A stretch of DNA of 64,000 nucleotides from an actinobacterium LLX17 (GTDB lineage: Bacteria; Actinomycetota; Actinomycetes; Propionibacteriales; Nocardioidaceae): assembly GCA_000471045.1 (NCBI GenBank), contig KI301992.1, positions 870,568-934,567 on the forward strand, written 5' to 3'. The translations under genes and the position numbers were made by a program. Positions 23,278-38,020 of the stretch are shown in pieces. The first letter of the stretch is position 1, and each line of letters starts with the position of its first letter. The notes under the pieces were generated by a model that was given only the letters and a program-made list of their open reading frames with translations, made no database searches and was not told where the DNA came from.

Positions 23278-23309
23278 GGAACGGCCCCACCATTCGGTGG
23301 GGCCGTTCC
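23278..23309. terminator. Strong stem-loop terminator after nrdJ
   Basis: GGAACGGCCCCACC, the loop ATTC, then the perfect 14-base complement, 14 bases after the nrdJ stop. It also separates the core chromosome from the accessory region and can act on the convergent gene at 23417. Confidence 0.85.
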
Positions 23310-23416
23310 TCGTTGAGTCTCCGTTAGTTCGTGAGCTACACGAGCAGCCCAGGACTGGGTTCTGCCACGTGCCACCGGCCCGCAACCGGCGCATGCCGAG
23401 CCGTTGGCGACCGCAC

Positions 23417-23923
23417 CTACGACCGAGACTTCGGCGGCCGGGGGACAGTTGCGATCTCTCCGACGACTTCGAGGCCGAGTCGCTGCGCGTCCTTCAAGAT
23501 CCACCCGAGTGCGTCGTCGTTCAAGAATCGTTCGCCGTTCTTGTTCTCGACGGCTCGAGGACTGCCCGGGCGGGAGTTCCAACCGTTCACGGCCTTGCCA
23601 TCCATGTAGCCGGCTCGTTGCGCGAACTCCGAAACTTCCTTGCTGGTGGCCCCTCGACCCTCCTCTGCGTTGAGCCTGCCGATCGCTCCCAAGTATGCGA
23701 GGTATGCCATCGACATCTGGGACTTCGTGCCCTTCGGGTCAGGAGTGAATGGCGGATCGTCGTGTAGAGGGTCGTACTTGAGTGGTCCGGCAGGACCACC
23801 CACGAGTGCGATTGGGCCGGAGTCCGAATCGCCCGACGATTCATCCAGTGCGGCAAGGAAAGCTTCGGCCGCGGCGCGCGCAGCCTTCAGCAGTGAAGTG
23901 GAGGCGTTCGGATCATTGGTCAT
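23417..23923 (-). CDS. Hypothetical protein, possible DNA-binding regulator
   Basis: This 168-residue protein is not recognised. The N-terminal third is an Ala-rich helix (MTNDPNASTSLLKAARAAAE). The C-terminal two thirds contain helices and a segment with GATSKEVSEFAQRAGY followed by GYMDGKAVNGWNS and a basic loop, which reads like a helix-turn-helix or winged helix. The start at 23923 lies about 36 bases after a well-formed promoter. It diverges from Block A across a 203-base region, so a regulatory role over that block is a reasonable guess. Confidence 0.55.
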   Translation of the reverse strand: MTNDPNASTSLLKAARAAAEAFLAALDESSGDSDSGPIALVGGPAGPLKYDPLHDDPPFTPDPKGTKSQMSMAYLAYLGAIGRLNAEEGRGATSKEVSEFAQRAGYMDGKAVNGWNSRPGSPRAVENKNGERFLNDDALGWILKDAQRLGLEVVGEIATVPRPPKSRS

Positions 23924-23965
23924 TCGAGCTCCTGACTCAGGCGTTAGATGACTTCCCACGTCTAC

Positions 23966-24002
23966 ATAGTAGGTGCGATGTACATTCACTGCAACTGCAG
24001 TG
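23966..24002 (-). promoter_or_regulatory. Promoter with overlapping palindrome upstream of 23417-23923
   Basis: Reading the minus strand, a -35 TTGCAG (23989-23994), a 17-base spacer and a -10 TACTAT (23966-23971) form a near-consensus promoter. The palindrome CACTGCAACTGCAGTG (23987-24002, 6-base arms) covers the -35, which fits a repressor site. Confidence 0.6.
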
Positions 24003-24126
24003 GACTCCTTCGTGCCCGTGCCCTGCCGCGGCCCGAGGGAGCGTGCGTCCAGGGACGGCTTGGCGTGACTCGTGCCTGGCTGCTCAGGCGACCCTGTACG
24101 ACCCGTGCCTGGTCTAGGGTCCTCGC

Positions 24127-24768
24127 GTGATCCCTGCCGTCTTCGCTTTCGACCAGCTTCCGCAAGTCGACCTCCACGTTGGTGCGATCTACCGGGGTGG
24201 ATCGAAGGGCCACCAGGGAGACGATCCGCTGCACCCGTTGCTTCGCGTCGGTAATGCCGGCGGCTTTCGGCAGCGTGGTCGGGGTAAACCCCGATACGTG
24301 GCTCTGTACTCGACTCGTACCGAGGAGGGATGGCCCGATCGCTTCATCAACGACGGGCGAACGTTCTTCTACTACGGGGATCAGCGAAGCCCAGGCGTTG
24401 ACCTCCACGACACTCCGCGAGGCGGGAACCGTCTGTTGAGACACGTCTTCGACCGAGTGCAGCGAGACGATCTGGAAGCCCGCGCCTCAATAGCCCCCCT
24501 CTTCCTTTTCCTGAAGGCGGGTAGCGGTCGTGACGTGACCTTTGCGGGACTGCTCGTCCCGGGGTCGGCGCTCTTGCCTGAGTCGGAGCAGCTCAAAGTG
24601 GAGCGGCTGATGAGCGCGACGGGCACGGTCGAGAACTACCGCGCCGCTTTCACAGTGCTCGATGCCCAAGTCATCTCACGAGCCTGGCTAGTGGACCTGG
24701 AAGCCGGTCGCCCGATGACGGTCAATGGTCCAGCCGAGTGGTTCAAGTGGGTCCTTCTTGGAACGTAG
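24127..24768 (+). CDS. Stand-alone AspBHI-N-like domain protein (modified-DNA reader)
   Basis: The 213-residue protein resembles the N-terminal domain of AspBHI-type modification-dependent restriction enzymes: an IYRGGSKGHQGDDPLHPLL start, a GNAGGFR motif, YVALYSTRTEEGWPDR, a YYGD motif and LHDTPRGGNRLLR near 95-107. In AspBHI this SRA-like domain reads 5-methylcytosine and a separate C-terminal nuclease cuts. Here the nuclease is absent. It starts with GTG. It lies 45 bases before a vsr gene, so reading and cutting may be split between proteins. Family assignment is from motif recall. Confidence 0.65.
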   Translation: MIPAVFAFDQLPQVDLHVGAIYRGGSKGHQGDDPLHPLLRVGNAGGFRQRGRGKPRYVALYSTRTEEGWPDRFINDGRTFFYYGDQRSPGVDLHDTPRGGNRLLRHVFDRVQRDDLEARASIAPLFLFLKAGSGRDVTFAGLLVPGSALLPESEQLKVERLMSATGTVENYRAAFTVLDAQVISRAWLVDLEAGRPMTVNGPAEWFKWVLLGT

Positions 24769-24813
24769 GTTGTCGTCCTGCGGCATGGTCCTAGCACGCC
24801 GAGGATTGGAGGG

Positions 24814-25263
24814 ATGAACGAGGAGAACGAATCGGCAAGTTGGGCGTCGTCGCCTACGAGTCGGCGTGTCATGAGAGCAAACAGACGCAGAGACACCGCG
24901 CCAGAGTTGGCCGTGCGCCGCGCGTGCCATGCGCGGGGTCTTCGCTATCTCGTGGACGCCAGACCACTGCCTCGGTTGAACCGACGAGCAGACATGGTTT
25001 TCAGGGGTGCGAGAGTCGCGGTGTTCATTGACGGTTGTTTTTGGCACGGGTGTCCGACGCATCACACGGCAGCGAAATCCAACTCTGTGTTCTGGAGCGA
25101 GAAGGTGACAACCAATCGGCGTCGTGACGCAGAGACGGATGCAGCGCTGCTCGCGGCCGGCTGGCTTCCCGTGCGCGCGTGGGAGCACGAGAAGCCCGAG
25201 GAAGTCGCTGAAAGAATCGTCCGCGCAGTGAGCGAGCGCCGCGGCACAGCAGGTCACAGCTAA
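24814..25263 (+). CDS. vsr: Very-short-patch (Vsr) DNA mismatch endonuclease
   Basis: Vsr nicks DNA 5' of T:G mismatches formed when 5-methylcytosine deaminates. The 149-residue protein has the core motifs: a RANRRRDTAPELAVRR helix, GLRYLVDARPLPR, the metal-binding RADMVF with the catalytic Asp, and VFIDGCFWHGCP with its zinc-site cysteines and histidine. The start may be 24814 or a Met 19 codons later, because ggaggg abuts the first ATG. A cytosine methyltransferase gene lies 3.6 kb downstream in the same direction, its expected functional partner. Confidence 0.92.
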   Translation: MNEENESASWASSPTSRRVMRANRRRDTAPELAVRRACHARGLRYLVDARPLPRLNRRADMVFRGARVAVFIDGCFWHGCPTHHTAAKSNSVFWSEKVTTNRRRDAETDAALLAAGWLPVRAWEHEKPEEVAERIVRAVSERRGTAGHS

Positions 25264-25322
25264 CACTGACCGGCTGGGTTAGGGTGTGGAAAGTTTTCCA
25301 CTAGGGGAGAGGGCGCGGAGCT

Positions 25323-27167
25323 TTGTCGAAAGACGTTTCCATCAACTGGACTTGGCTTCAGTCGGACCGGATGGGTGGTGTCGATGGCAGCGCGATGGGC
25401 AAGCTCTTCAAGAACTCCGGTGAGGTCTCGGACACCGCGCAGCTTGCGCGGGAGACTGTTCAGAACTCGTGGGACGCCGCCACGGCGTTTCGAGCCTCGA
25501 ATCTGGCCGTGCCGTTCAGAATGCGCTTTCGTTTCGTGGACGTGATCGCGGAAGAGAAGCAGAGATTGATCTCGGACCTGGATCTTCGGGGACTGGCGGA
25601 AAGAAGATCGGTGTTCGCGAAGAGTCCTGTACTGGACGGGACGATTCTGGATCACCTGGACGATGAGACCCCCATGCGGCTGCTCTACGTGGAGGACTTC
25701 GGAACACACGGACTCTATGGGCACCCCGACCTTGGCACGAGAAGCCACCTCTTTCTCGCGATGTACTACATCGGCGGGTCGGACAAGACACCCGGCTCCG
25801 GGGGCTCCTATGGCTTCGGCAAGAGCGCTCTCGAGCGGGCGAGCCGCGTCCATTCCGTCGTCGCTCACTCGGTATTCGAGCAGCAGGAAGACCCATACGA
25901 CGACGAAACGTCACGACTGGTGGGTTTCACCTGGTGGCCGGGGCACCGTAGTGAGAGCGACTCATACCAGGGTCGGGCGATCTTCGGAGCTTCCAGTGGA
26001 GCTGGACCGGGACCAGTCGAGGGTGCCCGATCCTATGAACTGGCAGAGGGTCTGGGCTTCGCGGAGCGCAGCCCTATCGAAGCCGACGAACTCGGTACCG
26101 GCTTCCTGGTCGTGGACCCCGCCATCGACCCCGAGGACTTGGTAGTCGAGCTGGAGAAGTGGTGGTGGCCCGCCCTCCATGAGCATGCTTTCGAGATCGA
26201 AGTCGTTACGGCGGACGGCCGTGTCCTCATCCCCAGACCCGCCGACAACCCTTTCGTCTCGCAGTTCCTCCCCGCCTACCGGATCGCGATCGGCCAGGAT
26301 GAGCCGTCAGATCCGAACAGGTCGCGTCGTCCCTCCGACAATTGGCGGGCCCGGGGTAGTGCCTCCGCGAACCTCGGCGCCTTGGGTTTGCACGTTCCAG
26401 ATCGAGCACTCCAGGAGGATGGTTCGGACGCAGAGGGGGAAGCTCTGGTCGCTTTGATGCGGTCCCCTCGGATGGTCATCAAGTACCTGAAGTACGGACG
26501 CGCGCGGGTGGCGCTCCGGGGAGCGTTCGTTGCCTCGGAGGACGCCAACGCCCTTCTGCGCCAGACGGAGCCTGCACTTCACGAGACCTGGTCGACCAAT
26601 CGCAGCAGCGACGTGGACCCGGAAGCAACCCAGAAAGCCAAAGCCATCCTTGACCGGATCAGGTCTTCCATCCGCAAGATGGCCGAGGAAGTCGCTCCGC
26701 CGCCCCCGAAGGACAACCGCGCGCTCACGCACTTCTCGAAGCTCATGTCAGGGTTTCTCGGGGATAAGGTCGGACCCTTCAGTCCCATCCCGCCCGGGGG
26801 GGAACCGATCGAACTGAAACTCACGAAGCGACCTCGGCCCGAGATCGAAGGAAACGACTCCGTCGTCCTCACGGCCGCCTTCACGGTGTCCGTTCTCGGA
26901 TCCGCGCCAGGCCAGTCGTGCATGGCTGTGGTGGCCTGCAAGTTGTACATCCAAGAGGATGACCGGGCCGGCTCGCGGTGGCCGGTGAGCATTGAGCCGT
27001 CCGACGAGACCGCGGGTTTCGTGCTCAACGAGGACGGGGAATGGGAAGGTGTGATCGAGCAGGGGAAGCGTCAGGAGTTCTCGGTTGCGAGTAGTCCGTA
27101 TTCGAATGCTTGGACGACGCGACTGGTGCCTACGGTCACCCGCGTCGGGGAGTGGGTCTCGGCATGA
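25323..27167 (+). CDS. GHKL (MutL/MORC-like) ATPase of a restriction-type locus
   Basis: This 614-residue protein has a GHKL ATP-binding fold: box N ETVQNSWDA (Glu44, Asn48, Asp51), the DxG box YVEDFGTHG (Asp125, Gly127) and the glycine box GSGGSYGFGK (158-167). The order and spacing resemble MutL/MORC-type ATPases known in bacterial restriction loci. The last ~300 residues are unassigned and end in a beta-rich region. A TTG at 25323 is taken as start with ggggagaggg upstream; a Met at 25371 is an alternative. It overlaps the next gene by 4 bases (ATGA). Confidence 0.7.
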   Translation: MSKDVSINWTWLQSDRMGGVDGSAMGKLFKNSGEVSDTAQLARETVQNSWDAATAFRASNLAVPFRMRFRFVDVIAEEKQRLISDLDLRGLAERRSVFAKSPVLDGTILDHLDDETPMRLLYVEDFGTHGLYGHPDLGTRSHLFLAMYYIGGSDKTPGSGGSYGFGKSALERASRVHSVVAHSVFEQQEDPYDDETSRLVGFTWWPGHRSESDSYQGRAIFGASSGAGPGPVEGARSYELAEGLGFAERSPIEADELGTGFLVVDPAIDPEDLVVELEKWWWPALHEHAFEIEVVTADGRVLIPRPADNPFVSQFLPAYRIAIGQDEPSDPNRSRRPSDNWRARGSASANLGALGLHVPDRALQEDGSDAEGEALVALMRSPRMVIKYLKYGRARVALRGAFVASEDANALLRQTEPALHETWSTNRSSDVDPEATQKAKAILDRIRSSIRKMAEEVAPPPPKDNRALTHFSKLMSGFLGDKVGPFSPIPPGGEPIELKLTKRPRPEIEGNDSVVLTAAFTVSVLGSAPGQSCMAVVACKLYIQEDDRAGSRWPVSIEPSDETAGFVLNEDGEWEGVIEQGKRQEFSVASSPYSNAWTTRLVPTVTRVGEWVSA

Positions 27168-28159
27168 GTGCCGTGCGTTCCGAGAAGTACGTCATTCGGC
27201 CGTTCGTGGACTTGGACGCGGCCGAGGAACTCTTCCATAACGTCCGGTTGTGTCTGGATGCGCAAGAACACGAAGCCGGACCGGTCGTGCTCGACCAGCA
27301 CACCCTGTCATCGGCAGACCTGGTTCTGCGGCTCCCTTCGCCAGCCGAGATCGTCGAAGCGGTAGAGCGGACGCCGGTGGCTCCGATCGATTGTGGCCTG
27401 GTCGTTGTAGCGGCATCGAACAGTAACCGCCGCTCGTGTGTCGTCTTCCGCGACTACGCCCGATACCTGACGTTCGGACAAGAGCTTGAGATCGACCGCG
27501 AGATCGATCCCTTGGTTTTCAAAGACCGAGGCGGTTTCGTCATCACCGTGGCGCTTGTTTTGCTTCACGAACTGCAATCCGAACCACTGCGACCTCATCT
27601 AGTCGGTACTTGGCTCGCCCGGCGAGAGTTCCGTCTGATCCCCGAGCGTGCCGAGTTCAGCTTCAGTCCTGAACCGCTGACGGGCGATATACGGCGTCAG
27701 TTCGGTCTGCCCGACCGGGCGCCGAGCTACGTGCGGATCGACGAGGACCATCTACTTACTGCGGATGAGCTTTCGAGCGCCGTCAGCGTCTATCTTGATG
27801 ACGACATTCTGCGATTGCTGCAGCAGTCGCAGAATGACGCGTTGTCGATTCATATTCAGTCTGAATTGGCGGTGACGACGATGGGCGCAGTCGCGCGCGC
27901 CGCGGTCGGCGCCGTTTCGCGCGAAGTCGACGGTCCGGCTGCACCGACGGACGTGGCGGACTACCCGGCAGTCGAACACTTCCTCACGCGACTGGCGAAG
28001 CGCCTCGAGAGGGAGACCCTCAGTTCGCTCCTCAGTCTGATCGACGATCCGGATGCCCTGGAGGCGCACTTGAGAGCGGCGTTCGACATCCGTCGCTTCA
28101 CGCTAGCGGCGCTCAAGTCGACGCCAACGCACTCGGTGCAGGAAGCGGGCTCGGAATGA
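27164..28159 (+). CDS. Hypothetical protein of Block A (331 aa)
   Basis: This protein is not recognised. It has an N-terminal mixed alpha/beta region (residues 1-200, with VALVLLHELQSEPL near 150), then a helical C-terminal half ending in a charged tail. No cysteine cluster, nuclease motif, Walker motif or membrane segment is seen. The ATG at 27164 overlaps the GHKL gene stop by 4 bases, and its own stop overlaps the next gene by 4 bases. The tight coupling suggests it works with the GHKL ATPase, perhaps as a specificity or adaptor subunit. That is inference. Confidence 0.7.
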   Translation: MSAVRSEKYVIRPFVDLDAAEELFHNVRLCLDAQEHEAGPVVLDQHTLSSADLVLRLPSPAEIVEAVERTPVAPIDCGLVVVAASNSNRRSCVVFRDYARYLTFGQELEIDREIDPLVFKDRGGFVITVALVLLHELQSEPLRPHLVGTWLARREFRLIPERAEFSFSPEPLTGDIRRQFGLPDRAPSYVRIDEDHLLTADELSSAVSVYLDDDILRLLQQSQNDALSIHIQSELAVTTMGAVARAAVGAVSREVDGPAAPTDVADYPAVEHFLTRLAKRLERETLSSLLSLIDDPDALEAHLRAAFDIRRFTLAALKSTPTHSVQEAGSE

Positions 28160-28893
28160 GGTATCCCACTGTCACCATTCGCGATGCAGTCGAATACGTC
28201 GAGGGCCGGCGTGCAGGCAAATATCCTCCGTCGGCGAAACCGGCCATCGTGTGGGAGGGCGTCGGCAAGGAGTACGACGACCTCGTTGACGGCGCCATCG
28301 AGGACCTGCTGGATGCGTGGATCGAGAATCGGGACGAGACCGCGGCATCGAAGAAGGATGCGCTGGAGGGTCGACTGTCCGTGGAGCTGTACGAGAATCT
28401 CGAGACACTCCCCGCCGAGATCTTGACCGATAGGGGGTTCTGGCGTTTCGTAGCGGTCCACGGAATCTACGACTTCGTTCAATGGCGCGATGGGGAAAAC
28501 TGCAAACTTGCGAGCTTCGGCGCCGGAGGACCGGGAGGTTGGGACTGCGTCCCGCATCGCATGTTCAATCGAGCGCTCATCGCGAAGGCCGGAGCGCCGC
28601 CAAGCGCGGCTGACCCCTTCTGGGGGGCATACGTCGCGGGGACTGATTTGTGGCGGAGCCACGTGTTGCGAGTCCTCATCGGGAACGCTCCCTTGCTGGT
28701 GAACGAGATGCTCCTGGATGCTTCTCGCGGCGAACTCCCGTCGCAGCTCCTCCGAGACTTCGTCAAACGTTTGCAACGCACGCGTGCCAACGTGATGTTC
28801 GAGTTGCTTGATCAGGACGAATGCCGGCGGCTGATCGACTCTCATAGGGCCATGGCCGTGTCGGCGGCGAAGTCGGAAGGTCCGACCGACTAG
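28156..28893 (+). CDS. Hypothetical protein of Block A (245 aa, possibly DUF6339-like)
   Basis: This protein is not securely recognised. It is mostly helical, with an RFVAVHGIYDFVQWRDG segment near 97 and a conserved-looking DLWRSHVLRVLIGN stretch near 170. It may belong to DUF6339, a family of unknown function, but this is a low-confidence recall. The ATG at 28156 overlaps the preceding stop by 4 bases. The methyltransferase gene begins 9 bases after its stop, so it belongs to the same operon. No catalytic motif is obvious. Confidence 0.65.
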   Translation: MRYPTVTIRDAVEYVEGRRAGKYPPSAKPAIVWEGVGKEYDDLVDGAIEDLLDAWIENRDETAASKKDALEGRLSVELYENLETLPAEILTDRGFWRFVAVHGIYDFVQWRDGENCKLASFGAGGPGGWDCVPHRMFNRALIAKAGAPPSAADPFWGAYVAGTDLWRSHVLRVLIGNAPLLVNEMLLDASRGELPSQLLRDFVKRLQRTRANVMFELLDQDECRRLIDSHRAMAVSAAKSEGPTD

Positions 28894-28902
28894 AATCCCT
28901 CC

Positions 28903-30213
28903 ATGCTCGAGACCACTGCCGGGGAACCGCCGCACTTCAGTCTGGAGCACGAAGTGCACCCTGAGGAAGTTGTCCGACGGGCAGTGTTGGAGGATCGAAT
29001 CACAGAGGGGCGTCGCGCCTTCGTCGAAGCGGAAACGGGTGACGCTTTCGCCGACTGGTGGAAGGCTTACCTGCGCGGTAGCCGTCCAAGACGCGACCGG
29101 ACCCGCGAGCCGGTTCGGTATGTTGATCTATTCTCGTCGATCGGCGGCCTGTCGCTAGGTGCTTCGGAGGCGATAGAGGCGCTCGGAATGCGCCCGGTGC
29201 CGCTGCTGGCCGCGGATGTCGACGCTGGGGCGCTGGAAGTCTATGCCCACAACATGCGTCCGCGGCAGACCCTCAGCGAGTCAGTGTCCAACCTCGTGGA
29301 CTACCGCGTGTCGGGGATGGGTGAGGACGCGTCGTTCGCCTATGAGCCATCCATTCGGGATGATCGCCTTGCTGGCATCGCTGGCACGATCGACTTGATC
29401 CTGGCAGGTCCGCCGTGCCAGGGACACTCATCGCTGAACAACTACTCGCGGCACGACGACCCGAAGAACCTCCTCTACTTGGCCGTGCCGGCCGTGGCCG
29501 TGGCGACACAGGCAACACACGTGATCATCGAGAACGTGCCGAACGTCGTTTCCGACAAGTACGGGGTCGTTCAAACCAGTGTGGCGCTCCTGCGAAACGC
29601 CGGCTACGAGGTCACCTACGGGGTGATTGCGGCCCACAAGCTCGGCTGGCCCCAGACGAGAAAGCGCTTCTTCATTGCTGCCTCTCGGGACTCCCGGCCC
29701 TTGGACCTTCACACGCTTCAGGCGCAGCTCGCGCGGGACGCGCTGCCGGTCGGATGGTTGTTGCAGGACACCCTGGACGATGTCGTAGCCGGCGACGTGA
29801 TGCGGTCTGTTCCGCAGATGAGTGATGAGAACGTCGAGCGCATCGCCCATCTCTTCGACAACGATACGTATAACTTGCCGAATGACATTCGTCCGGAGTG
29901 TCATCGGGAGGGCACCACGTATGGATCCAGTTATGGGCGCATGGCGTGGGATGAACCCGCGCCCACCATAACGGGGGGGTTCTTGACACCAGGGCGAGGG
30001 CGTTTCGTGCATCCGCTGCGAAGGCGAGTGCTGACTCCCCGCGAAGCGGCGCGAGTGCAGGGGTTCCCGGATTGGTACGACTTCGTGGTCGATGAGCGTC
30101 GTCCTGCATCTCGGGCCCAGCTCACGCGGTGGATCGGGAACGCGGTTCCGACAATCCTTGGTCAGACGGCGACACTGGCCGCCCTTGCCGGAGCCAAGGT
30201 GGACAGGACGTAG
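28903..30213 (+). CDS. DNA (cytosine-5) methyltransferase
   Basis: This 436-residue C5 methyltransferase has the ordered motifs of the Dcm/HhaI family: motif I YVDLFSSIGGLSLG near 73-86, motif IV GPPCQGHSS with catalytic Cys172, motif VI IENVPN near 209, motif VIII QTRKRFF near 250, and motifs IX-X with GNAVP near 417. An N-terminal helical extension of about 70 residues precedes motif I. The target-recognition region lies between VIII and IX; its site cannot be predicted. With vsr in the same operon this is the modification partner of Block A. Confidence 0.92.
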   Translation: MLETTAGEPPHFSLEHEVHPEEVVRRAVLEDRITEGRRAFVEAETGDAFADWWKAYLRGSRPRRDRTREPVRYVDLFSSIGGLSLGASEAIEALGMRPVPLLAADVDAGALEVYAHNMRPRQTLSESVSNLVDYRVSGMGEDASFAYEPSIRDDRLAGIAGTIDLILAGPPCQGHSSLNNYSRHDDPKNLLYLAVPAVAVATQATHVIIENVPNVVSDKYGVVQTSVALLRNAGYEVTYGVIAAHKLGWPQTRKRFFIAASRDSRPLDLHTLQAQLARDALPVGWLLQDTLDDVVAGDVMRSVPQMSDENVERIAHLFDNDTYNLPNDIRPECHREGTTYGSSYGRMAWDEPAPTITGGFLTPGRGRFVHPLRRRVLTPREAARVQGFPDWYDFVVDERRPASRAQLTRWIGNAVPTILGQTATLAALAGAKVDRT

Positions 30214-30322
30214 CTCGAACGGGCCATTTCGCTCATCGGTGTGGCGCGATTCTGCGGTGCGCTCCGTTTCTGACTCGGACAGTCACTAGGCTCGCCGTGT
30301 CGTAGATCTCGGAGGGGGAGCC

Positions 30323-33300
30323 GTGGAAGGCTGGCAAGGCAAGGACGGCGTGCTGGCGGCAATCGTCGAAGAGCAGTCCGCGCGCTGCATGGAAGCCTAC
30401 GCAGCGGACCCGAACAGGGTGAAAGAGGATTACCGCAACGAGCGGCGGACCGCGGAGAGTGGTTACGCGGTCAAGCAGCTCCACGAGCTGGTCCAGAACG
30501 CGGCGGACGCGATGACTGGTCAGCCTGGACGGATCGAAGTGGTCCTGACGGATGATGTTCTGTACGTCGCGAACGAAGGAGCGCCCTTCGATCGCGCTGG
30601 TGTGGAAGCCGTCATGGCTGCTCATCTCTCCAGCAAGGGGGAAGAGGAGATCGGACGATATGGACTGGGGTTCAAGTCCGTTGTCGTCGTCTCTGATTCG
30701 CCCCAGATTTTCAGCCGATCGGGTTCGTTCGGCTTCGATTTGAGCTGGTCGAAGCAAGAGGTAGCCCGGGTGGTCCCCGACGCCGAGGGATACCCTCTGC
30801 TGCGTTTGGCGAGACCACTCAACCCGGAGGCCCACGCTGCCGCGGACCCGCAGCTGGCGCAGTTGATGGATTGGGCTACCACCGTCGTCAAGGTTCCACT
30901 GAGTCGCGACCGCGTACGTCTGGCGGACGATCTGATGACCTTCCCCGCGCGGTTCCTGATCTTCTCCACGCACATCGAGAAACTGACCCTCGCCGACACG
31001 GAGTCGGGTCGACGGGTCGAGCACAAGCTGGCGGTCGTCTCCCCGAAGGAAGTCACGCTGGAAACCGGCGGGGAACGTCAGCGATGGGCGGTGGCGAAAC
31101 GCATCGCTACGTTGACCCGCGCCCAGATGGAAGACATCGGCGCAATGAAGAAGGGCGAGGCGGTCGTCGTGCAGGTGGCGACACCGATCGACCGTAGGCA
31201 GTCTTTCGCCATAGGACAGTTCTGGTCGTATTTCCCAACTCTTGACGAGACGACACTCAGCGCCATCGTGAACGCGCCGTGGAAGTTGAGCCCAGACCGC
31301 ACCCACCTTCAGCCGGGCGCTTACAACGAAGAACTCCTCGAATCAGTGGTTCCGTTGCTCGTCGCCGACCTGGTTCCCGTAGTGGGCAAGAGCGGTTCGC
31401 CGGCTGACGTGCTGGACATGTACCCGGGGCGCTATGCGAAGGTCGAAACTCGCAACTGGGCCGATGACATCGTGAATCGAGCGGTGTCGGATCGGCTGGC
31501 AGTCGTTCCCAGTCTCCCTGACGGTGACGGCGTCCTTCGCGTCCCCTCGACCCTTCGCATCCCGCCAGCGATCATCAATGAGAAGGACAATCCGGAGGCG
31601 AGCCAAGCGTGGTCCCGCCGGCATCCACGGCCGCAGGGATGGTTGCACCCTGACGCTTGGACCCGCACGCGCCGCCCCAAGGCGATGCGGCTTGCTGGTC
31701 AGCGCGCAGACGCCTCCCTGAGGGAATGGCTTGAGGCGCTGGTTGCGGACGGAACGGTCGAAGGTTCTGCGATCGCGCTGGAGACATTCGACCACCTGAA
31801 GCAAGCGCGCAGCGAAGCCAAGGATGCACGGATTCTGCTCGACGAGGACGGGGCGAAGGTCGCGGTCCGGCCGGGGACGATTTTCTTGCGAACCACCGGG
31901 GCCCCTTCGGACCATGCATTCGTGCATCCAGGCCTAGCTGAACTCCCCGAGACCGTGCGCATCCTGAAGGAACTCGGGATTCGAGAGCTCGACAAGGCTG
32001 GCGAACTACGGGCCGCTCTTGCCGGCGGTGATGCGAACAGGCTCAACTGGGACCGCGTATGGGGCCTAGCTCGCGGATGCGCGCCGGAGGTCGCGCACGA
32101 GATCCTCGTCGCCGAACTGCCTTCTCCTCTTCGCATGAGTTTGAGAGTCAGGTCTGTGGCAGGGGCATTCGTCCCGGTGGCCCGAGTTTTGCTGCCCGGG
32201 AACATCCTCGACAGGTCGCTCGCTGCGTCGGACGGCAAGTTCATGGTCGACTTGGCATATCACACCAACGATCAAGAGCTCCTGATTCGTTTGGGCGCAC
32301 TGGCAGCGCCTCGGCTCGAGGATCCGCCCCACCCCGAGCCGTGGCTCGACGCTTTCCTTGAGCGGATCCGGGATCGTTACGCTTCGCAACTGGGCAAGCC
32401 GGGGCTGAACCGGGAGAAGATCGCGGTCGAGATGCCGAAGGTCCCGTTCCCCATCCAGATGTTCCGTGAGCTGAGCGTGCCGGCGCGTGTTGCGATGACT
32501 CGGCATCTGCTGGGACTCGTTGACGGTTCGACGTGGTCCGTCCATCATCCGGACTTCGGCGCCATTCCAGCCGACAATCCTGTCGCGGAAATGGTCCGGG
32601 CTCACGGAGTGCTCGAGACCACCATCGGGCCATTCCCGGTGCGATGGTCCTTGGCGTCGGGCGGAGATGCCGACCGAGAGGTCATGCCGGTCGCAGACGT
32701 GCCGGACAGCTGCGGGTGGCTCAACCTTGAGCGCGACCGACACGAGCTGACAGCCGAAGCCTGGGAGGCGATGTTCATGCGGGCGAGGGAGTGGGAGGTT
32801 GCCCGGCGAGAGCGCCTGTACGCGTGGGCGGCTGAGTCCCGCGTCGATCCGCCACCGAAGCTCCTCGTTCGCTTTGGGTCGAAGATCTCCGAGGTGCCAG
32901 CGCCGGACGTCGCCGTGGTGATCGACGACGAGGACGTGCGTTCGCTCTTGGAGCAGCAGTTCGCCGTGTTGCAGGTCCAAGAGGAAGTCGACCGAGAGAA
33001 TCTCGTCGATGTCTGGGGACTGGAAGACGGTCGACAACTACTCGATCAGATCTTCACCTATCAGCCTGCGGGAGCGCCCGAGCCAATCAGTGACGCTTTC
33101 CCGGCCTTGGCGCGTATCCGTCCCGAAGTGCACGGCTGGAATCTCCAGCGCTGCACCTCCATGGCGCTCGAAGTCTTGACTCACGCCGGCATGCGATCAC
33201 GTCGGATCCTGAGACGCGCAGAGGAGCGCACCGTGTTCACCGTGGCGACGGACCTGGCAGACATCTTGCGAGCGATCTCGTCGTCGGTCTTGATGCCCGA

Positions 33301-34924
33301 GGAGCTGACCGAGGAGCAGGTCACGGCGATCCTCTCAGCGAAGCGGAATGAGGACACTCAAGCGAGGATCGATGCGGTTCGGGCGGTCGACTCGGTCGAG
33401 GAGAAGCTGGTCCAACTCTTCGGGGACGAGCTGCTGCGCAAGCACGTTCCCGAACTCGCCCTGCAATACATCGAAGGAGGAAGTGCCGAACCGGTCTCGG
33501 GGGCGGACCTGGGACGTGTCTTCCTCGCGGTCCATGGGGTCAGCGCGCTGAAGGCGTTGAAGTCACATCTGGCGGACTTCGATCCACCCTCGCAATGGGT
33601 CGGGGGAGCGAGGGCAAGACAATTCGTGTCGATGTTCGGATTTCCGCCGGAGTTCGCGGGCACGCCCAACACGGGTCGAGACCAGATGTTCTTGGTGCCT
33701 GGACCGACGACCCTTCCGCCGGCGCACGACTACCAGGCAGTGACTATCGGGAACATTCGACGGCTTCTCGCTGGTCACGGCCCAGCGCGAGGCATGGTCG
33801 GGCTCCCAACCGGAGCAGGTAAGACACGCGTCGCCGTCGAGGCCATCGTCGGCCACATGCACGAATCGGCAGACCCCATGCTCGTGTTGTGGATCGCTCA
33901 GACGGATGAGCTCTGCGAGCAAGCGGTTCAGACCTGGACGTACATCTGGCGCGCCATCGGACCCGATCGGGAGCTCTCCGTGGGACGGTTGTGGGGCGGG
34001 AACGTGGTGGATGAGTCGCCCGGGATGGCCCTGGTTGTGGCTACGCCAGCCACACTCCGGCACTGCGTCAACAAGAGTCAGTACGAATGGCTGCAGAGTG
34101 CGGATCTCGTCGTCACGGACGAAGCTCACCACGCGATCGCTCCCGAATACACTCAAGTCTTCGGATGGCTCGGACGTGACTTCCGGAACGTCGACGACCA
34201 TCAACGTCCAATGATCGGTCTGAGCGCCACTCCGTTTCGGGGTTCGAATGACAAGGAAGGCCTGGCTCTCGCTCGTCGGTACGCTTCGAATCGATTGGAT
34301 GCGGGAGCCTTCGGCGACGTGCCGGCCCACGAGTTCCTCCAGTCGGCCGGCGTGCTTGCACAGGTCTCCCATCGCGTTCTGAGCGGCGTCAACGTGAAGA
34401 TGTCGGAGGAAGAGAAGTCGTACACGCGGAACTACAACACGTTGCATCCGGAGGTCGAAGCTCGGCTTGGTGAGGATGTCGAGCGAAATCGTCAGATCAT
34501 CGAGTCGATCGAGTCCCTCCCGAACGACTGGACCGCCATCCTCTTCGCGGCTTCCGTGTCCCACGCTCAGGTCCTCGCATCCCTCCTCACCTACCGGGGG
34601 GTCAGCGCTGTGGCGATCTCGGGAGAGACCGACAGAGCCGTCCGACGAAACGTCATCGAGGAGTTCAAGGCCGGGCGAGTGCGTGTCATCACGAACTATG
34701 GCGTGCTGGCCCAGGGGTTTGACGCGCCGGCGGTACAAGCTGTCTACATCACGCGGCCCACGTTCAGTCCCAACCTCTACCAGCAGATGATCGGGCGCGG
34801 ACTTCGCGGCCCTGCCAACGGAGGGTCAGACAGTGTCCTGATCGTCAACGTGGAGGACAACTTCGAGCAATTCGGCGATCAACTCGCCTTCCATGAGTTC
34901 GACTACCTATGGGATGGACGGTGA
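30323..34924 (+). CDS. Sacsin-like GHKL ATPase fused to SF2 helicase
   Basis: This 1533-residue protein joins two ATPases. The N-terminus (about 45-300) is a GHKL domain of the sacsin type: ELVQNAADA (Glu55, Asn59, Asp62), YVANEG (Asn84) and GRYGLGFKSV (111-120). The C-terminus (about 1150-1533) is a DEAD-like SF2 helicase with GLPTGAGKT (near 1160), VVTDEAHH (near 1264), GLSATPFRG, and motif VI QMIGRGLRG (near 1489). The middle 800 residues are unassigned. A GTG start at 30323 has ggaggggg at 30311-30318. It closes Block A, 109 bases after the methyltransferase. Such proteins are seen in restriction and anti-phage loci. Confidence 0.82.
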   Translation: MEGWQGKDGVLAAIVEEQSARCMEAYAADPNRVKEDYRNERRTAESGYAVKQLHELVQNAADAMTGQPGRIEVVLTDDVLYVANEGAPFDRAGVEAVMAAHLSSKGEEEIGRYGLGFKSVVVVSDSPQIFSRSGSFGFDLSWSKQEVARVVPDAEGYPLLRLARPLNPEAHAAADPQLAQLMDWATTVVKVPLSRDRVRLADDLMTFPARFLIFSTHIEKLTLADTESGRRVEHKLAVVSPKEVTLETGGERQRWAVAKRIATLTRAQMEDIGAMKKGEAVVVQVATPIDRRQSFAIGQFWSYFPTLDETTLSAIVNAPWKLSPDRTHLQPGAYNEELLESVVPLLVADLVPVVGKSGSPADVLDMYPGRYAKVETRNWADDIVNRAVSDRLAVVPSLPDGDGVLRVPSTLRIPPAIINEKDNPEASQAWSRRHPRPQGWLHPDAWTRTRRPKAMRLAGQRADASLREWLEALVADGTVEGSAIALETFDHLKQARSEAKDARILLDEDGAKVAVRPGTIFLRTTGAPSDHAFVHPGLAELPETVRILKELGIRELDKAGELRAALAGGDANRLNWDRVWGLARGCAPEVAHEILVAELPSPLRMSLRVRSVAGAFVPVARVLLPGNILDRSLAASDGKFMVDLAYHTNDQELLIRLGALAAPRLEDPPHPEPWLDAFLERIRDRYASQLGKPGLNREKIAVEMPKVPFPIQMFRELSVPARVAMTRHLLGLVDGSTWSVHHPDFGAIPADNPVAEMVRAHGVLETTIGPFPVRWSLASGGDADREVMPVADVPDSCGWLNLERDRHELTAEAWEAMFMRAREWEVARRERLYAWAAESRVDPPPKLLVRFGSKISEVPAPDVAVVIDDEDVRSLLEQQFAVLQVQEEVDRENLVDVWGLEDGRQLLDQIFTYQPAGAPEPISDAFPALARIRPEVHGWNLQRCTSMALEVLTHAGMRSRRILRRAEERTVFTVATDLADILRAISSSVLMPEELTEEQVTAILSAKRNEDTQARIDAVRAVDSVEEKLVQLFGDELLRKHVPELALQYIEGGSAEPVSGADLGRVFLAVHGVSALKALKSHLADFDPPSQWVGGARARQFVSMFGFPPEFAGTPNTGRDQMFLVPGPTTLPPAHDYQAVTIGNIRRLLAGHGPARGMVGLPTGAGKTRVAVEAIVGHMHESADPMLVLWIAQTDELCEQAVQTWTYIWRAIGPDRELSVGRLWGGNVVDESPGMALVVATPATLRHCVNKSQYEWLQSADLVVTDEAHHAIAPEYTQVFGWLGRDFRNVDDHQRPMIGLSATPFRGSNDKEGLALARRYASNRLDAGAFGDVPAHEFLQSAGVLAQVSHRVLSGVNVKMSEEEKSYTRNYNTLHPEVEARLGEDVERNRQIIESIESLPNDWTAILFAASVSHAQVLASLLTYRGVSAVAISGETDRAVRRNVIEEFKAGRVRVITNYGVLAQGFDAPAVQAVYITRPTFSPNLYQQMIGRGLRGPANGGSDSVLIVNVEDNFEQFGDQLAFHEFDYLWDGR

Positions 34925-35027
34925 GCTGAGAGGATCCGTGGGAACATGTCCGCCGTCGCCGAGGGCTGCCGCTCGGTTCGATTGCCCGACCTATCTCGCC
35001 AGCAGTGGTGTCGATTGCCTTCCACTG

Positions 35028-36218
35028 TTACGAGTCGGACTTGGAACCGTTCTTCGTGACCATCGCGTAGCCAGTGGCCGCGACGGCGGCGACCGTGCCA
35101 CCGGCCACCAGCGCCTTCTGGCCGGCTTCCTTACCGGCGGTCCGCCTTTGCTTCGGGTCGCGGGCCGCCTCACGCCAAGGGATCGCGTTCAGGGGAGGGC
35201 GGTCGGATGCGATTCCCAGCGGGGCGTGGAAGTCGTTGATGATCTCTGCCGTGGCGTTGAGGGAGTCGATCACGGACCGCGCTGCACGTGCGTGGAGCAG
35301 AATGTTGTCATTGGCGATCTCGCCGGCTACATCCAAGCGCGACATCAAGCGCCTCGTGTTGTCCATAACGCCTGCCCGCCGCCTCTCTCGTGCGGCGGCA
35401 ACGCCAAGCCGGTGGCCTTCGAGGTTCTCCGGAGCAGTTGCAAGAACGTGGTCGAGTTCGACGATGCGAAACTCATCTTGTAGCTCGAAACAGCGGGCGA
35501 GAATCGCGACTTGAACGCCAGCCTCGTGTTCGATCTCGCGGACAGCTCGCTTCAACTCGCCGGCCGTGCTCTTGCGCACGACCTTATCGGCGAGTGCGCG
35601 TAACCCATTGAGCGCATCGTCCTGCACGTTGAAGATCGTGTTTGAGACTCCGCTGACCTTGTCCCACAGTGTCTTCGGATCGCCGCCCTGCGCACGGATG
35701 ATCATGGCGTCGTCGATGGCTGCGGCTGCGCTCGTCATCTTGGCGAGCACGCCGTCCCGTTGCGCACGGCGGACATCGTCGAGCTTGTCATCGATTCGCA
35801 GGAGCAGCGCCTTCAGCTCGTGTGCCTCGGACTGCTGAGCGAACTGACTCATGAGGCTACCGATGCCGGAGAGGACCGCCGGGTTCGACAGGAGCGATCT
35901 CGGACCGTCTTGAACCTGGAGCCACTTGAGTGACTTCTTGCCACTCTCGCCCAACATCGCGTGGCTGACGCCCTTGGTCTTGGTCTTCATCAGGCCGCCG
36001 GCGTCCTTGAGCCGCTTCGCCGACTCGGGCGTCAGCTTCAGGTACATCGCGGACTGCTCGACGATGCCGGAAACGGACGTGACGCTGTCGGCTCCGACTT
36101 TGAGGACGGTGCTGAGCCTGCTGAGGTCGAACTGGTGAGCCTGCTCCAGGAGACCCGCGTGGTCGAGGAAGCGTTCGACTGCCAACGAATTTCCCGCGAG
36201 CACGACCGTCGCCGTCAC
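35028..36218 (-). CDS. Helical protein with C-terminal membrane segment, end of Block B operon
   Basis: This 396-residue protein is not recognised. It is largely helical (for example AILARCFELQDEFRIVELDH) with a hydrophobic 20-residue segment near the C-terminus (KALVAGGTVAAVAATGYAMV, about 370-389) then a short charged tail. A TGA lies directly before the GTG start at 36218, fixing the start at or after it. It is the last gene of the long minus-strand run and converges with the helicase gene of Block A. A membrane-acting effector is one possible reading, without motif support. Confidence 0.65.
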   Translation of the reverse strand: MTATVVLAGNSLAVERFLDHAGLLEQAHQFDLSRLSTVLKVGADSVTSVSGIVEQSAMYLKLTPESAKRLKDAGGLMKTKTKGVSHAMLGESGKKSLKWLQVQDGPRSLLSNPAVLSGIGSLMSQFAQQSEAHELKALLLRIDDKLDDVRRAQRDGVLAKMTSAAAAIDDAMIIRAQGGDPKTLWDKVSGVSNTIFNVQDDALNGLRALADKVVRKSTAGELKRAVREIEHEAGVQVAILARCFELQDEFRIVELDHVLATAPENLEGHRLGVAAARERRRAGVMDNTRRLMSRLDVAGEIANDNILLHARAARSVIDSLNATAEIINDFHAPLGIASDRPPLNAIPWREAARDPKQRRTAGKEAGQKALVAGGTVAAVAATGYAMVTKNGSKSDS

Positions 36219-36242
36219 TCACGAGCTCGATTTCATCCGCCA

Positions 36243-36422
36243 TCAGTCGATCCCTCGCCGAACTCTGGAATCGGTACTAGGTGGACGAGCGCTGCCGTGG
36301 TCTGCGAACAGCCGGCGCCACTGCTTTCCCTCGGTCCACTCGTAGCTGCGTTGGAACGTGCGGATGATGTAGCGGCGCTCAGGCTTGAGAATCTCCCCGA
36401 GCGCCCAGGTCTTGGCTTCCAC
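36243..36422 (-). pseudogene. DUF262 (GmrSD-like) N-terminal remnant
   Basis: A 59-codon frame starts at a GTG immediately after the upstream TGA (TGAGTG) and reads LKPERRYIIRTFQRSYEW followed by KQWRRLFAD. This matches the conserved N-terminal nucleotidase-like motif of DUF262/GmrS proteins (a PxYQRxYxW-type line then WxxLxxD). Full proteins are several hundred residues; here the frame ends after another 18 residues at 36243. It is therefore most likely a deleted remnant, though a functional micro-protein cannot be excluded. It is too short to be found by length-based gene calling. Confidence 0.55.
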
Positions 36423-37451
36423 TCACACCACCTCTTCAAGTTGATCTTCGGCCGAGTAGTCGTCGAGCGAGCCGAGATAGGTCCAGGTGCCGCTCACCAG
36501 GGCGACGGCCTGACCGACACGGCTCAGGTGGACGTTGCCGCCGTGCGGTAGAAACTCACGCCACCGTTCAGCCGCCCTGACCGCGATCGCGCCGTACTCA
36601 TTGGACAGGAGGTCCGTCGCGGCCGGGTCGTAAAGGTCGCCGACGTGGCCAAGCAGACGCAGTGTCCGGCTCGGCGGTGCGGCGGGCCAGACGTCACCTG
36701 CCGCAAGATCGACGTACTCGTCGGAGAAGGTGCGCCGTTGCGCGTTGCGTTGCGCCTCCAGCGCCGCTTCAAGGCCGGCGATCGTCTCCGCCATGACAGC
36801 CAACTCGTTGGCGGCGGCCTCGGCGTCAGCCTTGGCGGCTTCGCCAGTCGTGCGGGCTTTCGCAACCTCCGCCGCCTGGGCCTTGTGCTTGACCTGATAC
36901 TCCTCGAGCTCCCGGGCGAGCTCAGCCACCATCTCCTCCGGCGCTCCGCCGAAGACGGCCCCGCCTTCGAGGGCATCGACCCGCGCGATGAGCTCGGTAG
37001 CTTCTTCGGCGACAGGGAGGCCCAGGAACGACGCGACGTCTCGAATCAGCTCAGCGTCCGCTCGCAACGTCTGCAGCGCGGGCACCTCGTCGAAGTGCTG
37101 CTCGCGGTTGCGGAACTTGAAGGGGATGCTCTTGAACTTGCTCCAGACATTGAGTGGCATGGGCCCGAGGCACTGCTTCAGAGGTGAGTCCGTGTTCTTC
37201 GCGGGCTCGTTCACGCAGAAATTGGGGTCCCACAAGTTCGGCAGCTTCTTGTACATCGGTACGTCGGGATGCTGCTGCTTGCGGACCTCGACCAGCTTCT
37301 CCAGCCAGTCATCACCGAACTTGGGGCACATCTTGTCGTGGTAGTACTTGCCGAGATCCCACCCGAATGCACGGAGCATCGTCTGGGTGCCCTTGATGAC
37401 CTCGCCGAACGAGCCGTCGACCGGCAGCGCCGTTCCTACACGTGGGATCAT
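36423..37451 (-). CDS. Swt1-like HEPN domain protein with coiled coil
   Basis: The 342-residue protein has an N-terminal helical domain (about 20-150) ending in KFRNREQHFDE, an R-x4-H arrangement (Arg114, Asn115, His119) typical of HEPN ribonucleases and especially of Swt1-type HEPN domains. A long Ala/Glu-rich coiled coil (about 165-250) follows, then a small C-terminal domain. HEPN proteins usually act as RNases in stress and phage defence. It overlaps the upstream gene by 4 bases (ATGA). The HEPN call rests on this motif and fold pattern. Confidence 0.6.
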   Translation of the reverse strand: MIPRVGTALPVDGSFGEVIKGTQTMLRAFGWDLGKYYHDKMCPKFGDDWLEKLVEVRKQQHPDVPMYKKLPNLWDPNFCVNEPAKNTDSPLKQCLGPMPLNVWSKFKSIPFKFRNREQHFDEVPALQTLRADAELIRDVASFLGLPVAEEATELIARVDALEGGAVFGGAPEEMVAELARELEEYQVKHKAQAAEVAKARTTGEAAKADAEAAANELAVMAETIAGLEAALEAQRNAQRRTFSDEYVDLAAGDVWPAAPPSRTLRLLGHVGDLYDPAATDLLSNEYGAIAVRAAERWREFLPHGGNVHLSRVGQAVALVSGTWTYLGSLDDYSAEDQLEEVV

Positions 37452-38020
37452 GGCGCGAGCCTCGCCTTCACGATCGGGAGGACACGAGTCAGCACGTAGA
37501 CCGCGAGCGGACCGAGCGGCTCGTACCCGGAGAAGACGACCGCGAGCCGGTTCTTGTAGGCGTTGCTGGTATCGCCGAGGACCTTGGCACGAGTTCCGAA
37601 GTCAATTGCGCCGGCTTCAATGAACAGTGCCTCCGCCGAGCTCTCTAGGCACTGGTCAAGATCGGACGGTGTGGCCTTCTTGCAGCTGCCCCATCCATGC
37701 GGTCCGTGTGTGCTGTCCCACCGCAGAAGGTCTGCGACGACGTGCTCGGCACCATCCTGACGCTTCAACACAGACATTCGCTCACCGTGCAAGAGACGGT
37801 CGTAGGCCGGTGGGCTGTCGCCCCGACTCAGAGCGATGACCGCCCCGGCGTCATCCCATCGCTGGTAAGCGATCTCCATGAGCAGGCCGTCGGGGGCGAC
37901 GACGACGGCAGGCATCTCCCAGGCGGTATGAGTCTCGCCAGCGAAGTCACTGACCTGCAGTTCGCGCCCACCGTGGTCCGGGACGAGAAGAGTTGCACGA
38001 CCAATCTGAAACTTACTCAT
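37448..38020 (-). CDS. Hypothetical protein of the methyltransferase operon (190 aa)
   Basis: This protein is not recognised. The first half is beta-rich (MSKFQIGRATLLVPDHGG and following) and the second half is alpha/beta with a hydrophobic YEPLGPLAVYVLTRVLPIV stretch near the end. It lies between the adenine methyltransferase and HEPN genes and overlaps each by 4 bases (ATGA), so it should be made in step with them. No catalytic motif is evident. A specificity or inhibitor role is conceivable but unsupported. Confidence 0.7.
   Translation of the reverse strand: MSKFQIGRATLLVPDHGGRELQVSDFAGETHTAWEMPAVVVAPDGLLMEIAYQRWDDAGAVIALSRGDSPPAYDRLLHGERMSVLKRQDGAEHVVADLLRWDSTHGPHGWGSCKKATPSDLDQCLESSAEALFIEAGAIDFGTRAKVLGDTSNAYKNRLAVVFSGYEPLGPLAVYVLTRVLPIVKARLAP

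What the first reader, a model, noticed from the sequence alone, without database searches (positions are those of the whole stretch)
24127..34924. Candidate restriction system with a 5mC reader, Vsr, cytosine methyltransferase and two different GHKL ATPases
The seven genes are all on the plus strand, with ATGA overlaps inside the central trio. A MutL/MORC-like ATPase and a sacsin-like ATPase-helicase occur in the same locus as Vsr and a C5 methyltransferase. GHKL ATPases with Vsr and methyltransferases are known from restriction loci, but the pairing of both types with a lone AspBHI-N-like reader and the two unknowns looks unusual. Function in defence is inferred.
Basis: partly seen in the sequence, partly recalled or inferred. 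Interest (0 to 1): 0.78.

Follow-up and report, generated by a model that had tools for sequence, protein, structure and literature searches.

The report
Hybrid methylation-linked bacterial anti-virus gene cluster
A seven-gene island in an actinomycete genome combines a three-gene ATP-driven module, a DNA-methylating enzyme with its repair partner, a methylation-reading protein and a large helicase whose relatives mostly sit beside a known phage-defence system (DISARM), so it looks like a naturally rebuilt, untested defence system made from known parts.

Summary
The seven genes are real, intact and co-directional, with both ATGA overlaps. Gene 3 is a paraMORC2-type GHKL ATPase (diagnostic ExxxH present), gene 5 a divergent DUF6339 protein. 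GHKL-middle-DUF6339 is a conserved trio in actinomycetes, haloarchaea and a cyanobacterium; PADLOC lists it as candidate PDC-M33, so the 'unusual trio' is a known, untested module. Gene 7, sacsin-like N-terminus plus SF2 helicase ('SacHel'), belongs to a family that sits with DISARM DrmA+DrmB in 75 of 80 loci, mostly with a UvrD-like helicase, C5 methyltransferase and Vsr; 56 of 80 carry the trio. None of 20 classical-DrmA loci examined has SacHel or the trio. The window's SacHel is of the DISARM-linked kind, but its genome lacks DrmB and has no DrmA above cut-off. Its paraMORC2 falls outside the clade that accompanies SacHel in Streptomyces and relatives (AU p = 6.4e-5), so the pairing seems to have arisen twice. 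Gene 1 is only the SRA-like half of an AspBHI/LpnPI-type enzyme, its 5mC pocket largely kept; the same genus has a second lone reader beside Vsr, methyltransferase and SacHel. Best reading: a rearranged, DISARM-core-free, 5mC-linked defence system. Function is inferred. Gene 4 has no detectable relative.

The parts
24127..24768 (+). Gene 1: lone SRA-like 5mC reader (N-domain of AspBHI/LpnPI family, 213 aa; no nuclease domain)
   Evidence: PF18062 4.5e-47; LpnPI-N 4rzl 1.6e-40 and AspBHI 4oc8 1.8e-38; pocket residues W69, D71, Y82-Y83-G84-D85, R87 kept, N63 changed to T; closest relatives 403-490 aa, their C-terminal part not found here
24814..25263 (+). Gene 2: Vsr-family endonuclease, 149 aa
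   Evidence: TIGR00632 2.3e-31 above cut-off; aligns to E. coli Vsr 1cw0 3.4e-10
25323..27167 (+). Gene 3: paraMORC2-type GHKL ATPase, 614 aa (TTG start)
   Evidence: PADLOC PDC-M33A 2.7e-17; N-box, G1, G2 motifs and ExxxH at 416-420; window-excluded profile 4.8e-65
27164..28159 (+). Gene 4: 331-aa protein in the middle position of the trio; ATGA overlap with gene 3; homology to other middle proteins not detectable
28156..28893 (+). Gene 5: divergent DUF6339-family protein, 245 aa; ATGA overlap with gene 4
   Evidence: window-excluded profiles 8e-10, 1.3e-6, 1.2e-10 and 0.046; PF19866 0.024
28903..30213 (+). Gene 6: C5 cytosine methyltransferase, 436 aa
   Evidence: PF00145 1.6e-39; GPPCQG, ENV, QTRKR motifs; at most about 32% identity to any methyltransferase of the related loci listed, best score to L031 at 30%
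30323..34924 (+). Gene 7: SacHel, sacsin-like GHKL N-terminus fused to RadD-like SF2 helicase, 1533 aa
   Evidence: NF047352 7e-21 above cut-off, RadD model 3.4e-27 but far below that model's cut-off; full-length 35-36% identity to six DISARM-linked relatives; motifs intact
23300..49500 (.). Probable acquired island (approximate limits) holding the locus: GC 0.636 against 0.702 (1-20000) and 0.698 (49500-64000)

Best explanation
The locus is one horizontally acquired, cytosine-methylation-linked anti-invader system rebuilt from two known module sets. Shown here: a paraMORC2 trio position with an ATPase of its own deep lineage, a sacsin-helicase whose sister and other clade-mates all lie near DISARM DrmA, a C5 methyltransferase with Vsr, and a nuclease-less SRA-like 5mC reader. 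Inferred mechanism: the methyltransferase marks host DNA; Vsr repairs the T:G mismatches that 5mC deamination creates; the paraMORC2 ATPase, with gene 4 and DUF6339 as partners, forms an ATP-gated DNA clamp or loop; SacHel supplies translocation or unwinding in place of the Z1 helicase or DrmA/DrmB found with relatives; the lone reader flips out 5mC and tells the complex whether DNA carries the mark, so that unmarked incoming DNA is remodelled or blocked. No recognised restriction nuclease is encoded except Vsr, so block of replication, Vsr nicking or host nucleases are all possible end points. One functional unit is the most likely form (about 0.5); the individual steps are inferred.
For: Trio order conserved outside the genus: 24 of 26 non-window GHKL ORFs have a DUF6339-family gene in the fetched locus (profile seeded with the window and three plasmid loci), including haloarchaeal and cyanobacterial plasmids. 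SacHel loci: DrmA+DrmB 75/80, methyltransferase 74/80, Vsr 54/80, full trio 56/80. Classical-DrmA loci: SacHel 0/20, trio 0/20. SacHel tree: window sister to G018 (0.999) within a 13-tip clade of support 1.0 (97 and 99 SH-aLRT). GHKL: window excluded from the clade of trios that accompany SacHel in other actinomycetes, AU p 6.4e-5, so the pairing appears to have arisen twice. A second lone reader next to Vsr, methyltransferase and SacHel in the same genus. Intact motifs. Island composition and empty site.
Against: No experiment. Gene 4 is not shown to be a middle-protein homologue. No DrmA above cut-off and no DrmB in the genome and no UvrD-type hit in window 10-50 kb, so parts that SacHel relatives nearly always have are missing. 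Reader-type genes are rare near SacHel: 1 of 80 loci, 4 of 12 in the window's order. The window GHKL sits on a long branch. The methyltransferase is not close to any of the related loci, so it gives no independent support for common descent of the set.
Confidence: 0.5

Rival explanations
1. Neighbours, not one system: a paraMORC2 trio, an ordinary methyltransferase-Vsr pair and a left-over DISARM sacsin-helicase happen to share a defence island and work separately.
For: Each part occurs without the others: 24 of 80 SacHel loci lack the full trio; 10 of 11 loci of the Z1-linked GHKL clade show no SacHel in the stretch fetched; other defence-type genes follow at 38-48 kb. 109 bp separate genes 6 and 7.
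Against: All seven genes are co-directional with gaps of 45, 59, -4, -4, 9 and 109 bp; SacHel and trio are paired in two separate GHKL lineages.
Confidence: 0.27
2. A decaying DISARM island: DrmA, DrmB, the UvrD-like helicase and the nuclease half of the reader were lost, and what remains has little activity.
Confidence: 0.15
3. Type IV-like targeting: the lone reader finds 5mC on foreign DNA and recruits the motor complex, and the resident methyltransferase has a different site.
For: Relatives of gene 1 are modification-dependent restriction enzymes of the AspBHI/LpnPI type (PMC4499157, passages); full-length relatives lie near SacHel in G400, G668 and G078.
Against: Nuclease half absent, so a new effector link must be assumed; both lone readers sit in loci with a C5 methyltransferase, which fits reading of the own mark as well.
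Confidence: 0.08

Closest known systems
paraMORC2 restriction-modification operons (Iyer, Abhiman, Aravind 2008, PMC2292703; parts 1-3 of 4 of the text read)
   Same: GHKL ATPase with ExxxH motif, with SF2 helicase, cytosine methylase and Vsr-family nuclease nearby; proposed DNA looping.
   Different: Here the helicase is a sacsin-fused RadD-like protein; no RE-fold partner recognised beside it apart from Vsr; a lone SRA-like reader is present. Whether gene 4/DUF6339 equal the unnamed domains of their figure could not be checked (figures are not held).
PADLOC candidate PDC-M33
   Same: Gene 3 matches PDC-M33A; DUF6339 relatives match PDC-M33C.
   Different: Gene 5 itself matches no PADLOC model and gene 4 nothing at all; no paper found with DUF6339 or PDC-M33.
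DISARM (DrmA/DrmB core, with C5 or A methyltransferase; PMC9142583, passages)
   Same: SacHel relatives, C5 methyltransferase and Vsr lie in short-DrmA DISARM loci.
   Different: No DrmA above cut-off, no DrmB in the window's genome.
Z1-helicase systems: PADLOC MzaC/MzaD and the CglI/NgoAVII RM systems (PMC4267653, passages)
   Same: In the 11-row Z1-linked GHKL clade a Z1 helicase is in 11 of 11 loci and a DUF4420 PD-(D/E)XK protein in 9 of 11.
   Different: Window has no Z1 or DUF4420 hit among its ORFs from 10-50 kb; SacHel takes the helicase place.
AspBHI/LpnPI (MspJI-family) 5mC-dependent restriction enzymes (PMC4499157, passages)
   Same: Same SRA-like domain with flipped-base pocket.
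   Different: Nuclease domain absent in gene 1.

Membership tests
paraMORC2 (Iyer 2008) | GHKL motifs with ExxxH in the C-terminal part of the S5 region | tested here: met
   E416 and H420 invariant in 24 sequences; N-box, G1, G2 present. The S5 region itself was not tested by structure
paraMORC2 (Iyer 2008) | Operon with SF2 helicase, methylase or Vsr-type nuclease | tested here: met
   Genes 2, 6, 7
PADLOC PDC-M33 | PDC-M33A and PDC-M33C model matches | tested here: inconclusive
Trio middle-protein (MID) family | Sequence homology of gene 4 to the middle proteins | tested here: inconclusive
   Position and length fit; rank 80th, 37th and 69th in three profiles, hhalign probability 0.5% (E 0.11), while L045's middle protein scores 96.9%
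DUF6339 (PF19866) | Profile match | tested here: met
   Below Pfam's cut-off alone (0.024) and 0.046 with a SacHel-locus profile, but 8e-10, 1.3e-6 and 1.2e-10 with three diverse window-excluded profiles, first of all targets each time
DISARM | DrmA helicase | tested here: not met
   Only a 22.9-bit helicase hit, cut-off 950, whole own genome
DISARM | DrmB (DUF1998) | tested here: not met
   No match in the own genome
AspBHI/MspJI-family restriction enzyme | SRA-like 5mC-binding domain | tested here: met
AspBHI/MspJI-family restriction enzyme | C-terminal endonuclease domain | tested here: not met
   Frame ends at 24768; no convincing trace in 23-31 kb by tblastn with full-length relatives
Vsr | TIGR00632 above curated cut-off | tested here: met
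   108.5 against 97.85 bits
Vsr | T:G mismatch nicking | not testable with these tools
   needs enzyme assay
Type II restriction-modification | Restriction enzyme cutting the unmethylated methyltransferase site | tested here: inconclusive
   No restriction-type nuclease other than Vsr recognised among the seven genes; gene 4 is unassigned
Mza / Z1 systems | Z1 helicase | tested here: not met
   No Z1-profile ORF in window 10-50 kb

The most novel reading that the evidence does not exclude
A DISARM-core-free defence system in which a paraMORC2 ATP-gated clamp and a sacsin-fused helicase, steered by a stand-alone SRA-like 5mC reader, tell self from non-self by methylation and stop invaders without a dedicated restriction nuclease; SacHel would be an interchangeable motor that can serve either DrmA/DrmB or a paraMORC2 trio.
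Probability: 0.25. Interest if true: 0.75.

Novelty: new variant of a known kind. Interest (0 to 1): 0.52.

Why it matters
It ties three separately listed things together: the 2008 paraMORC2 operons, the untested PDC-M33 trio and a form of DISARM with a short DrmA, UvrD-like helicase, SacHel, C5 methyltransferase and Vsr. The pairing of trio and SacHel in two lineages predicts a physical partnership that can be tested at once. Because eukaryotic MORC silencing proteins have been proposed to descend from such bacterial ATPases (PMC2292703), a bacterial system that couples a MORC relative to a stand-alone 5mC reader would be a simple model for methylation-directed MORC action.

Tried and rejected
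Circular test withdrawn: the first HMM survey was seeded with the window's own proteins. Repeated without them it upheld genes 3 and 7 clearly, gene 5 with diverse profiles (not with the SacHel-locus profile alone, E 0.046), and failed for gene 4. In one search gene 4 ranked first of 248 window ORFs but with E = 1.1, with reversed ORFs added as decoys, it ranked 80th, 37th and 69th in three profiles. Gene 4 therefore counts only by position.

Fold searches: the DUF6339 model (L077 protein, pLDDT 79.7, all-helical) had no Foldseek match with E <= 0.001; best VIA-align Z 4.2, which the tool rates as no more than a common arrangement. The middle-protein model (L111, pLDDT 89.0, pTM 0.62) has three Foldseek matches at E <= 0.001 with TM-scores to the query of 0.20-0.23 and an Ig-like beta-sandwich at about residues 1-155 (best Z 8.9, many unrelated families); the helical rest was hardly tested. 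Neither model is of the window's own protein, so nothing follows for gene 4. The idea of a HEPN RNase in DUF6339 (an R-x5-H in relatives) was dropped: the pair is not kept in the window row.

FastTree put the window GHKL in the Z1 clade (0.888); the careful tree joins it there only weakly (71/35, with L044) on a long branch, and window plus Z1 rows are one side of a branch at 78/54, neither shown nor rejected. I do not claim Z1 descent. The rejected group was the SacHel-linked rows less L077, which I left out after seeing the tree; the p-value is therefore somewhat flattered.

A claim that the window's methyltransferase is of the DISARM rather than the trio kind was dropped: the profile it fits best (192.8 bits against 105.9 and 79.3) was built from a mixed set, and its best single hit is in a Z1-type trio locus.

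Response_reg_2/HEF_HK (PMC8011034, abstract and outline) was considered for genes 3-5; no such Pfam match. Searches without result: gene 4 in viral contigs; genes 4 and 5 in plasmids; gene 4 in 58 relatives (own genome only) and in 391 genomes of the order (two weak local hits besides the own; L051, fetched around one of them, showed no family member).

Rows dropped or counted twice: of 24 class hits for gene 3 all were fetched, but L046 and L050 held no GHKL family member by profile; of four plasmid hits three were fetched (H3 not). Of 80 SacHel loci, 14 are 24 kb or shorter and were left out of the 'untruncated' counts. L112 and L123 overlap on one contig and share one trio, so the 80 are 79 separate places as to neighbourhood and the 56 trios are 55.

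Print searches: 'DUF6339' 0 papers; 'PDC-M33' in none of the 4 papers found for 'phage defence candidate'; of 15 papers holding three or more of DISARM, DrmA, DrmB, sacsin, UvrD, Streptomyces none holds both sacsin and DISARM; combined related terms, and only 15 of 98 and 10 of 57 papers were listed in the last two. The library lacks most subscription papers, so the short-DrmA/SacHel form may be in print elsewhere.
Full report
What is there. The window lies in a 3.0-Mb single-contig genome. Seven open frames run on + from 24127 to 34924, with gaps of 45, 59, -4, -4, 9 and 109 bp; the two ATGA overlaps were read directly. Family scans give: lone RE_AspBHI_N domain; Vsr above its NCBIfam cut-off; a GHKL protein whose only meaningful match is PADLOC PDC-M33A; a 331-aa protein without any match; a weak DUF6339 match; a C5 methylase; and a 1533-aa protein with a sacsin-type N-terminus and an SF2 helicase end closest to RadD.

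The island. GC is 0.636 in 23.3-49.5 kb against 0.702 before 20 kb and 0.698 after 49.5 kb. Third-position GC of the seven genes is 0.67-0.75 against 0.93 for the gene at 20394-23261, a ribonucleotide reductase by my recall of its sequence. Stretches of 17 kb round that gene were compared in six congeners: none matches 24.1-35 kb. In G004 the gene is followed after about 95 bp by sequence matching window 59-64 kb (with one local swap of order), in G005 after about 180 bp by sequence matching 50.4-51.3 kb; the other four showed no right-flank match. So the locus sits in an insertion whose right border is only approximate.

The trio. A search of 394 class genomes with gene 3 gave 25 genomes including the own. 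All 24 others were fetched, 22 proved to hold the family by profile, and three plasmid loci (two haloarchaea, one Synechococcus) added four more ORFs. Of these 26 non-window GHKL ORFs, 24 have a DUF6339-family ORF in the fetched locus; of the other two, one lies at a locus edge. In 56 of 56 trio-bearing SacHel loci an in-frame start of the middle gene lies within 60 nt of the GHKL stop, and likewise for the third gene (the nearest start was chosen, which favours this). PADLOC calls the first and third PDC-M33A and PDC-M33C. The ExxxH motif that Iyer and colleagues gave for paraMORC2 (PMC2292703, text parts 1-3 of 4 read) is invariant in the 24 sequences aligned.

Limits of homology. With the window left out of the profiles, gene 3 scores 4.8e-65 and gene 7 practically 0. 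Gene 5 scores 0.046 with a profile from SacHel loci only, but 8e-10, 1.3e-6 and 1.2e-10 with three more diverse profiles, ahead of 1879 reversed decoys. Gene 4 fails, whereas another divergent middle gene, in L045, passes. The middle gene seems the fastest-changing of the three.

The sacsin-helicase. Profile annotation gives DrmA and DrmB 75 each, UvrD-like 75, methyltransferase 74, Vsr 54, full trio 56, and trio with Vsr and methyltransferase 43 (of 80 each). One pair, L112 and L123, overlaps and shares its trio, so one trio is counted twice. DrmA and DrmB assignments rest on one representative each that passes the NCBIfam cut-off. Among 66 untruncated loci, DrmA+DrmB occur in 65. Methyltransferase number follows the GHKL gene: two copies in 46 of 50 loci with it (one in 2, none in 2), one copy in 14 of 16 without (two in 1, three in 1), as if the trio came with a methyltransferase of its own. 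One of the two kinds is also the common kind in trio-less loci; L124 has both kinds without a trio.

Control from the DrmA side. From the list I took, in list order, 20 long-form DrmA loci and 20 of the short, split-match form (G602:C9, G458 and G018 skipped). Seven of the 20 short-form neighbourhoods were already known to me. Long form: SacHel 0/20, trio 0/20, C5 methyltransferase 0/20, UvrD 1/20. Short form: UvrD-family hit 20/20 (any UvrD-like ORF), SacHel 13/20, methyltransferase 11/20, trio 8/20, Vsr 5/20. Four of the 40 stretches are cut short by contig ends or by the request (L201, L202, L222, L225). This points to a form of DISARM that I did not find in the papers searched (listings partial). 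The 2025 YprA-helicase preprint PMC12458937 was seen in abstract and passages only; it mentions UvrD once, in ARMADA, and holds no GHKL or MORC term.

Where the window differs. In the order, 12 of 391 genomes have SacHel at E <= 1e-60; the 11 others all show a DrmA-family ORF in the stretches fetched. The window genome has no DrmB and only a 22.9-bit DrmA hit against a cut-off of 950. Its SacHel is sister to that of G018, same genus (0.999), in a 13-tip clade of support 1.0, with 97 and 99 SH-aLRT in a second tree of 44 rows chosen by me. The other 12 members have DrmA nearby, so its absence here is most simply a loss; 11 of the 12 show no trio in the stretch fetched, while G103 has a Z1-type trio about 12 kb beyond its SacHel. 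In the same tree another starred clade of 13 rows consists only of loci with the trio. The GHKL tree (39 rows chosen by me) keeps the window out of that SacHel-DISARM group; forcing it in is rejected, AU p = 6.4e-5, the group having been trimmed of L077 after the tree was seen. Its link to the Z1 clade is weak (78/54). The row is long, so its exact place is open. Taken together, SacHel and a paraMORC2 trio seem to have been joined at least twice.

Gene 1 aligns over most of its length with the N-domains of LpnPI (4rzl) and AspBHI (4oc8). Of the pocket residues given in PMC4499157 (passages), W69, D71, Y82, Y83, G84, D85 and R87 (AspBHI form) are kept and N63 is T; the loop residue N42 is kept. 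Closest relatives are 403-490 aa; no C-terminal remnant was found in 23-31 kb. PF18062 occurs in 16 of 394 class genomes. Their neighbourhoods were all read: three lie near SacHel (G000, G018, G668) and two more near a trio (G598, G119). Two of the three short frames, G000 and G018, are both in loci with Vsr, methyltransferase and SacHel; the third, G499, is a partial match. Full-length versions lie near SacHel in G400 and G078 as well.

How it may work. Shown: parts, motifs, order, phylogeny. Vsr may be only a repair partner: it occurs with methyltransferases with or without the trio. The histidine of E. coli Vsr aligned to the aspartate of FIDGCF is not kept here; whether this matters was not tested. 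If Vsr is not the effector, the locus has no recognised restriction nuclease; DISARM's nuclease DrmC likewise appears non-essential (PMC9142583, passages).

Verdict. A real, intact and coherent locus; a new variant of paraMORC2/DISARM-type methylation-linked defence, rearranged from known modules, with function untested. The wider pattern (a SacHel-bearing form of DISARM with an accessory PDC-M33 trio and second methyltransferase) is as interesting as the window itself.

Noticed in passing
L052-L131 and L208-L227: A form of DISARM with short DrmA, UvrD-like helicase, sacsin-helicase, C5 methyltransferase and Vsr, often with the paraMORC2 trio; SacHel and trio absent from 20 long-form DrmA loci.
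   Followed up: partly
window 38020-45065 (-): MmeI-like type IIG enzyme (PADLOC REase_MTase_IIG 1.6e-274) beside a PLD-SNF2 helicase that matches C3a139 and DrmD models: another restriction-type system just downstream.
   Followed up: no
window 44144-49051 (-): A 1290-aa frame with AAA and RNase_H_2 domains matching PADLOC MkoA/MkoC, overlapping the neighbouring frame by about 920 bases, so gene borders there need care; a HAD_SAK_2 protein follows.
   Followed up: no
window 35031-38020 (-) and 23420-23989 (-): Four frames with no Pfam or PADLOC match at the thresholds used, within or beside the island.
   Followed up: no
   Followed up: partly
L175/L176 (G103): A Z1-DUF4420-paraMORC2 locus lies about 12 kb beyond a SacHel-UvrD-DrmA-DrmB locus, both with methyltransferase and Vsr between them: a possible source of window-like recombinants.
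   Followed up: no
L004 606-2498 and 8890-10788; L005: Halomicrobium and Halobaculum plasmids carry the trio near DISARM-like genes (DUF1998 or its relative, PLD, helicase); Halomicrobium has two GHKL copies.
   Followed up: partly
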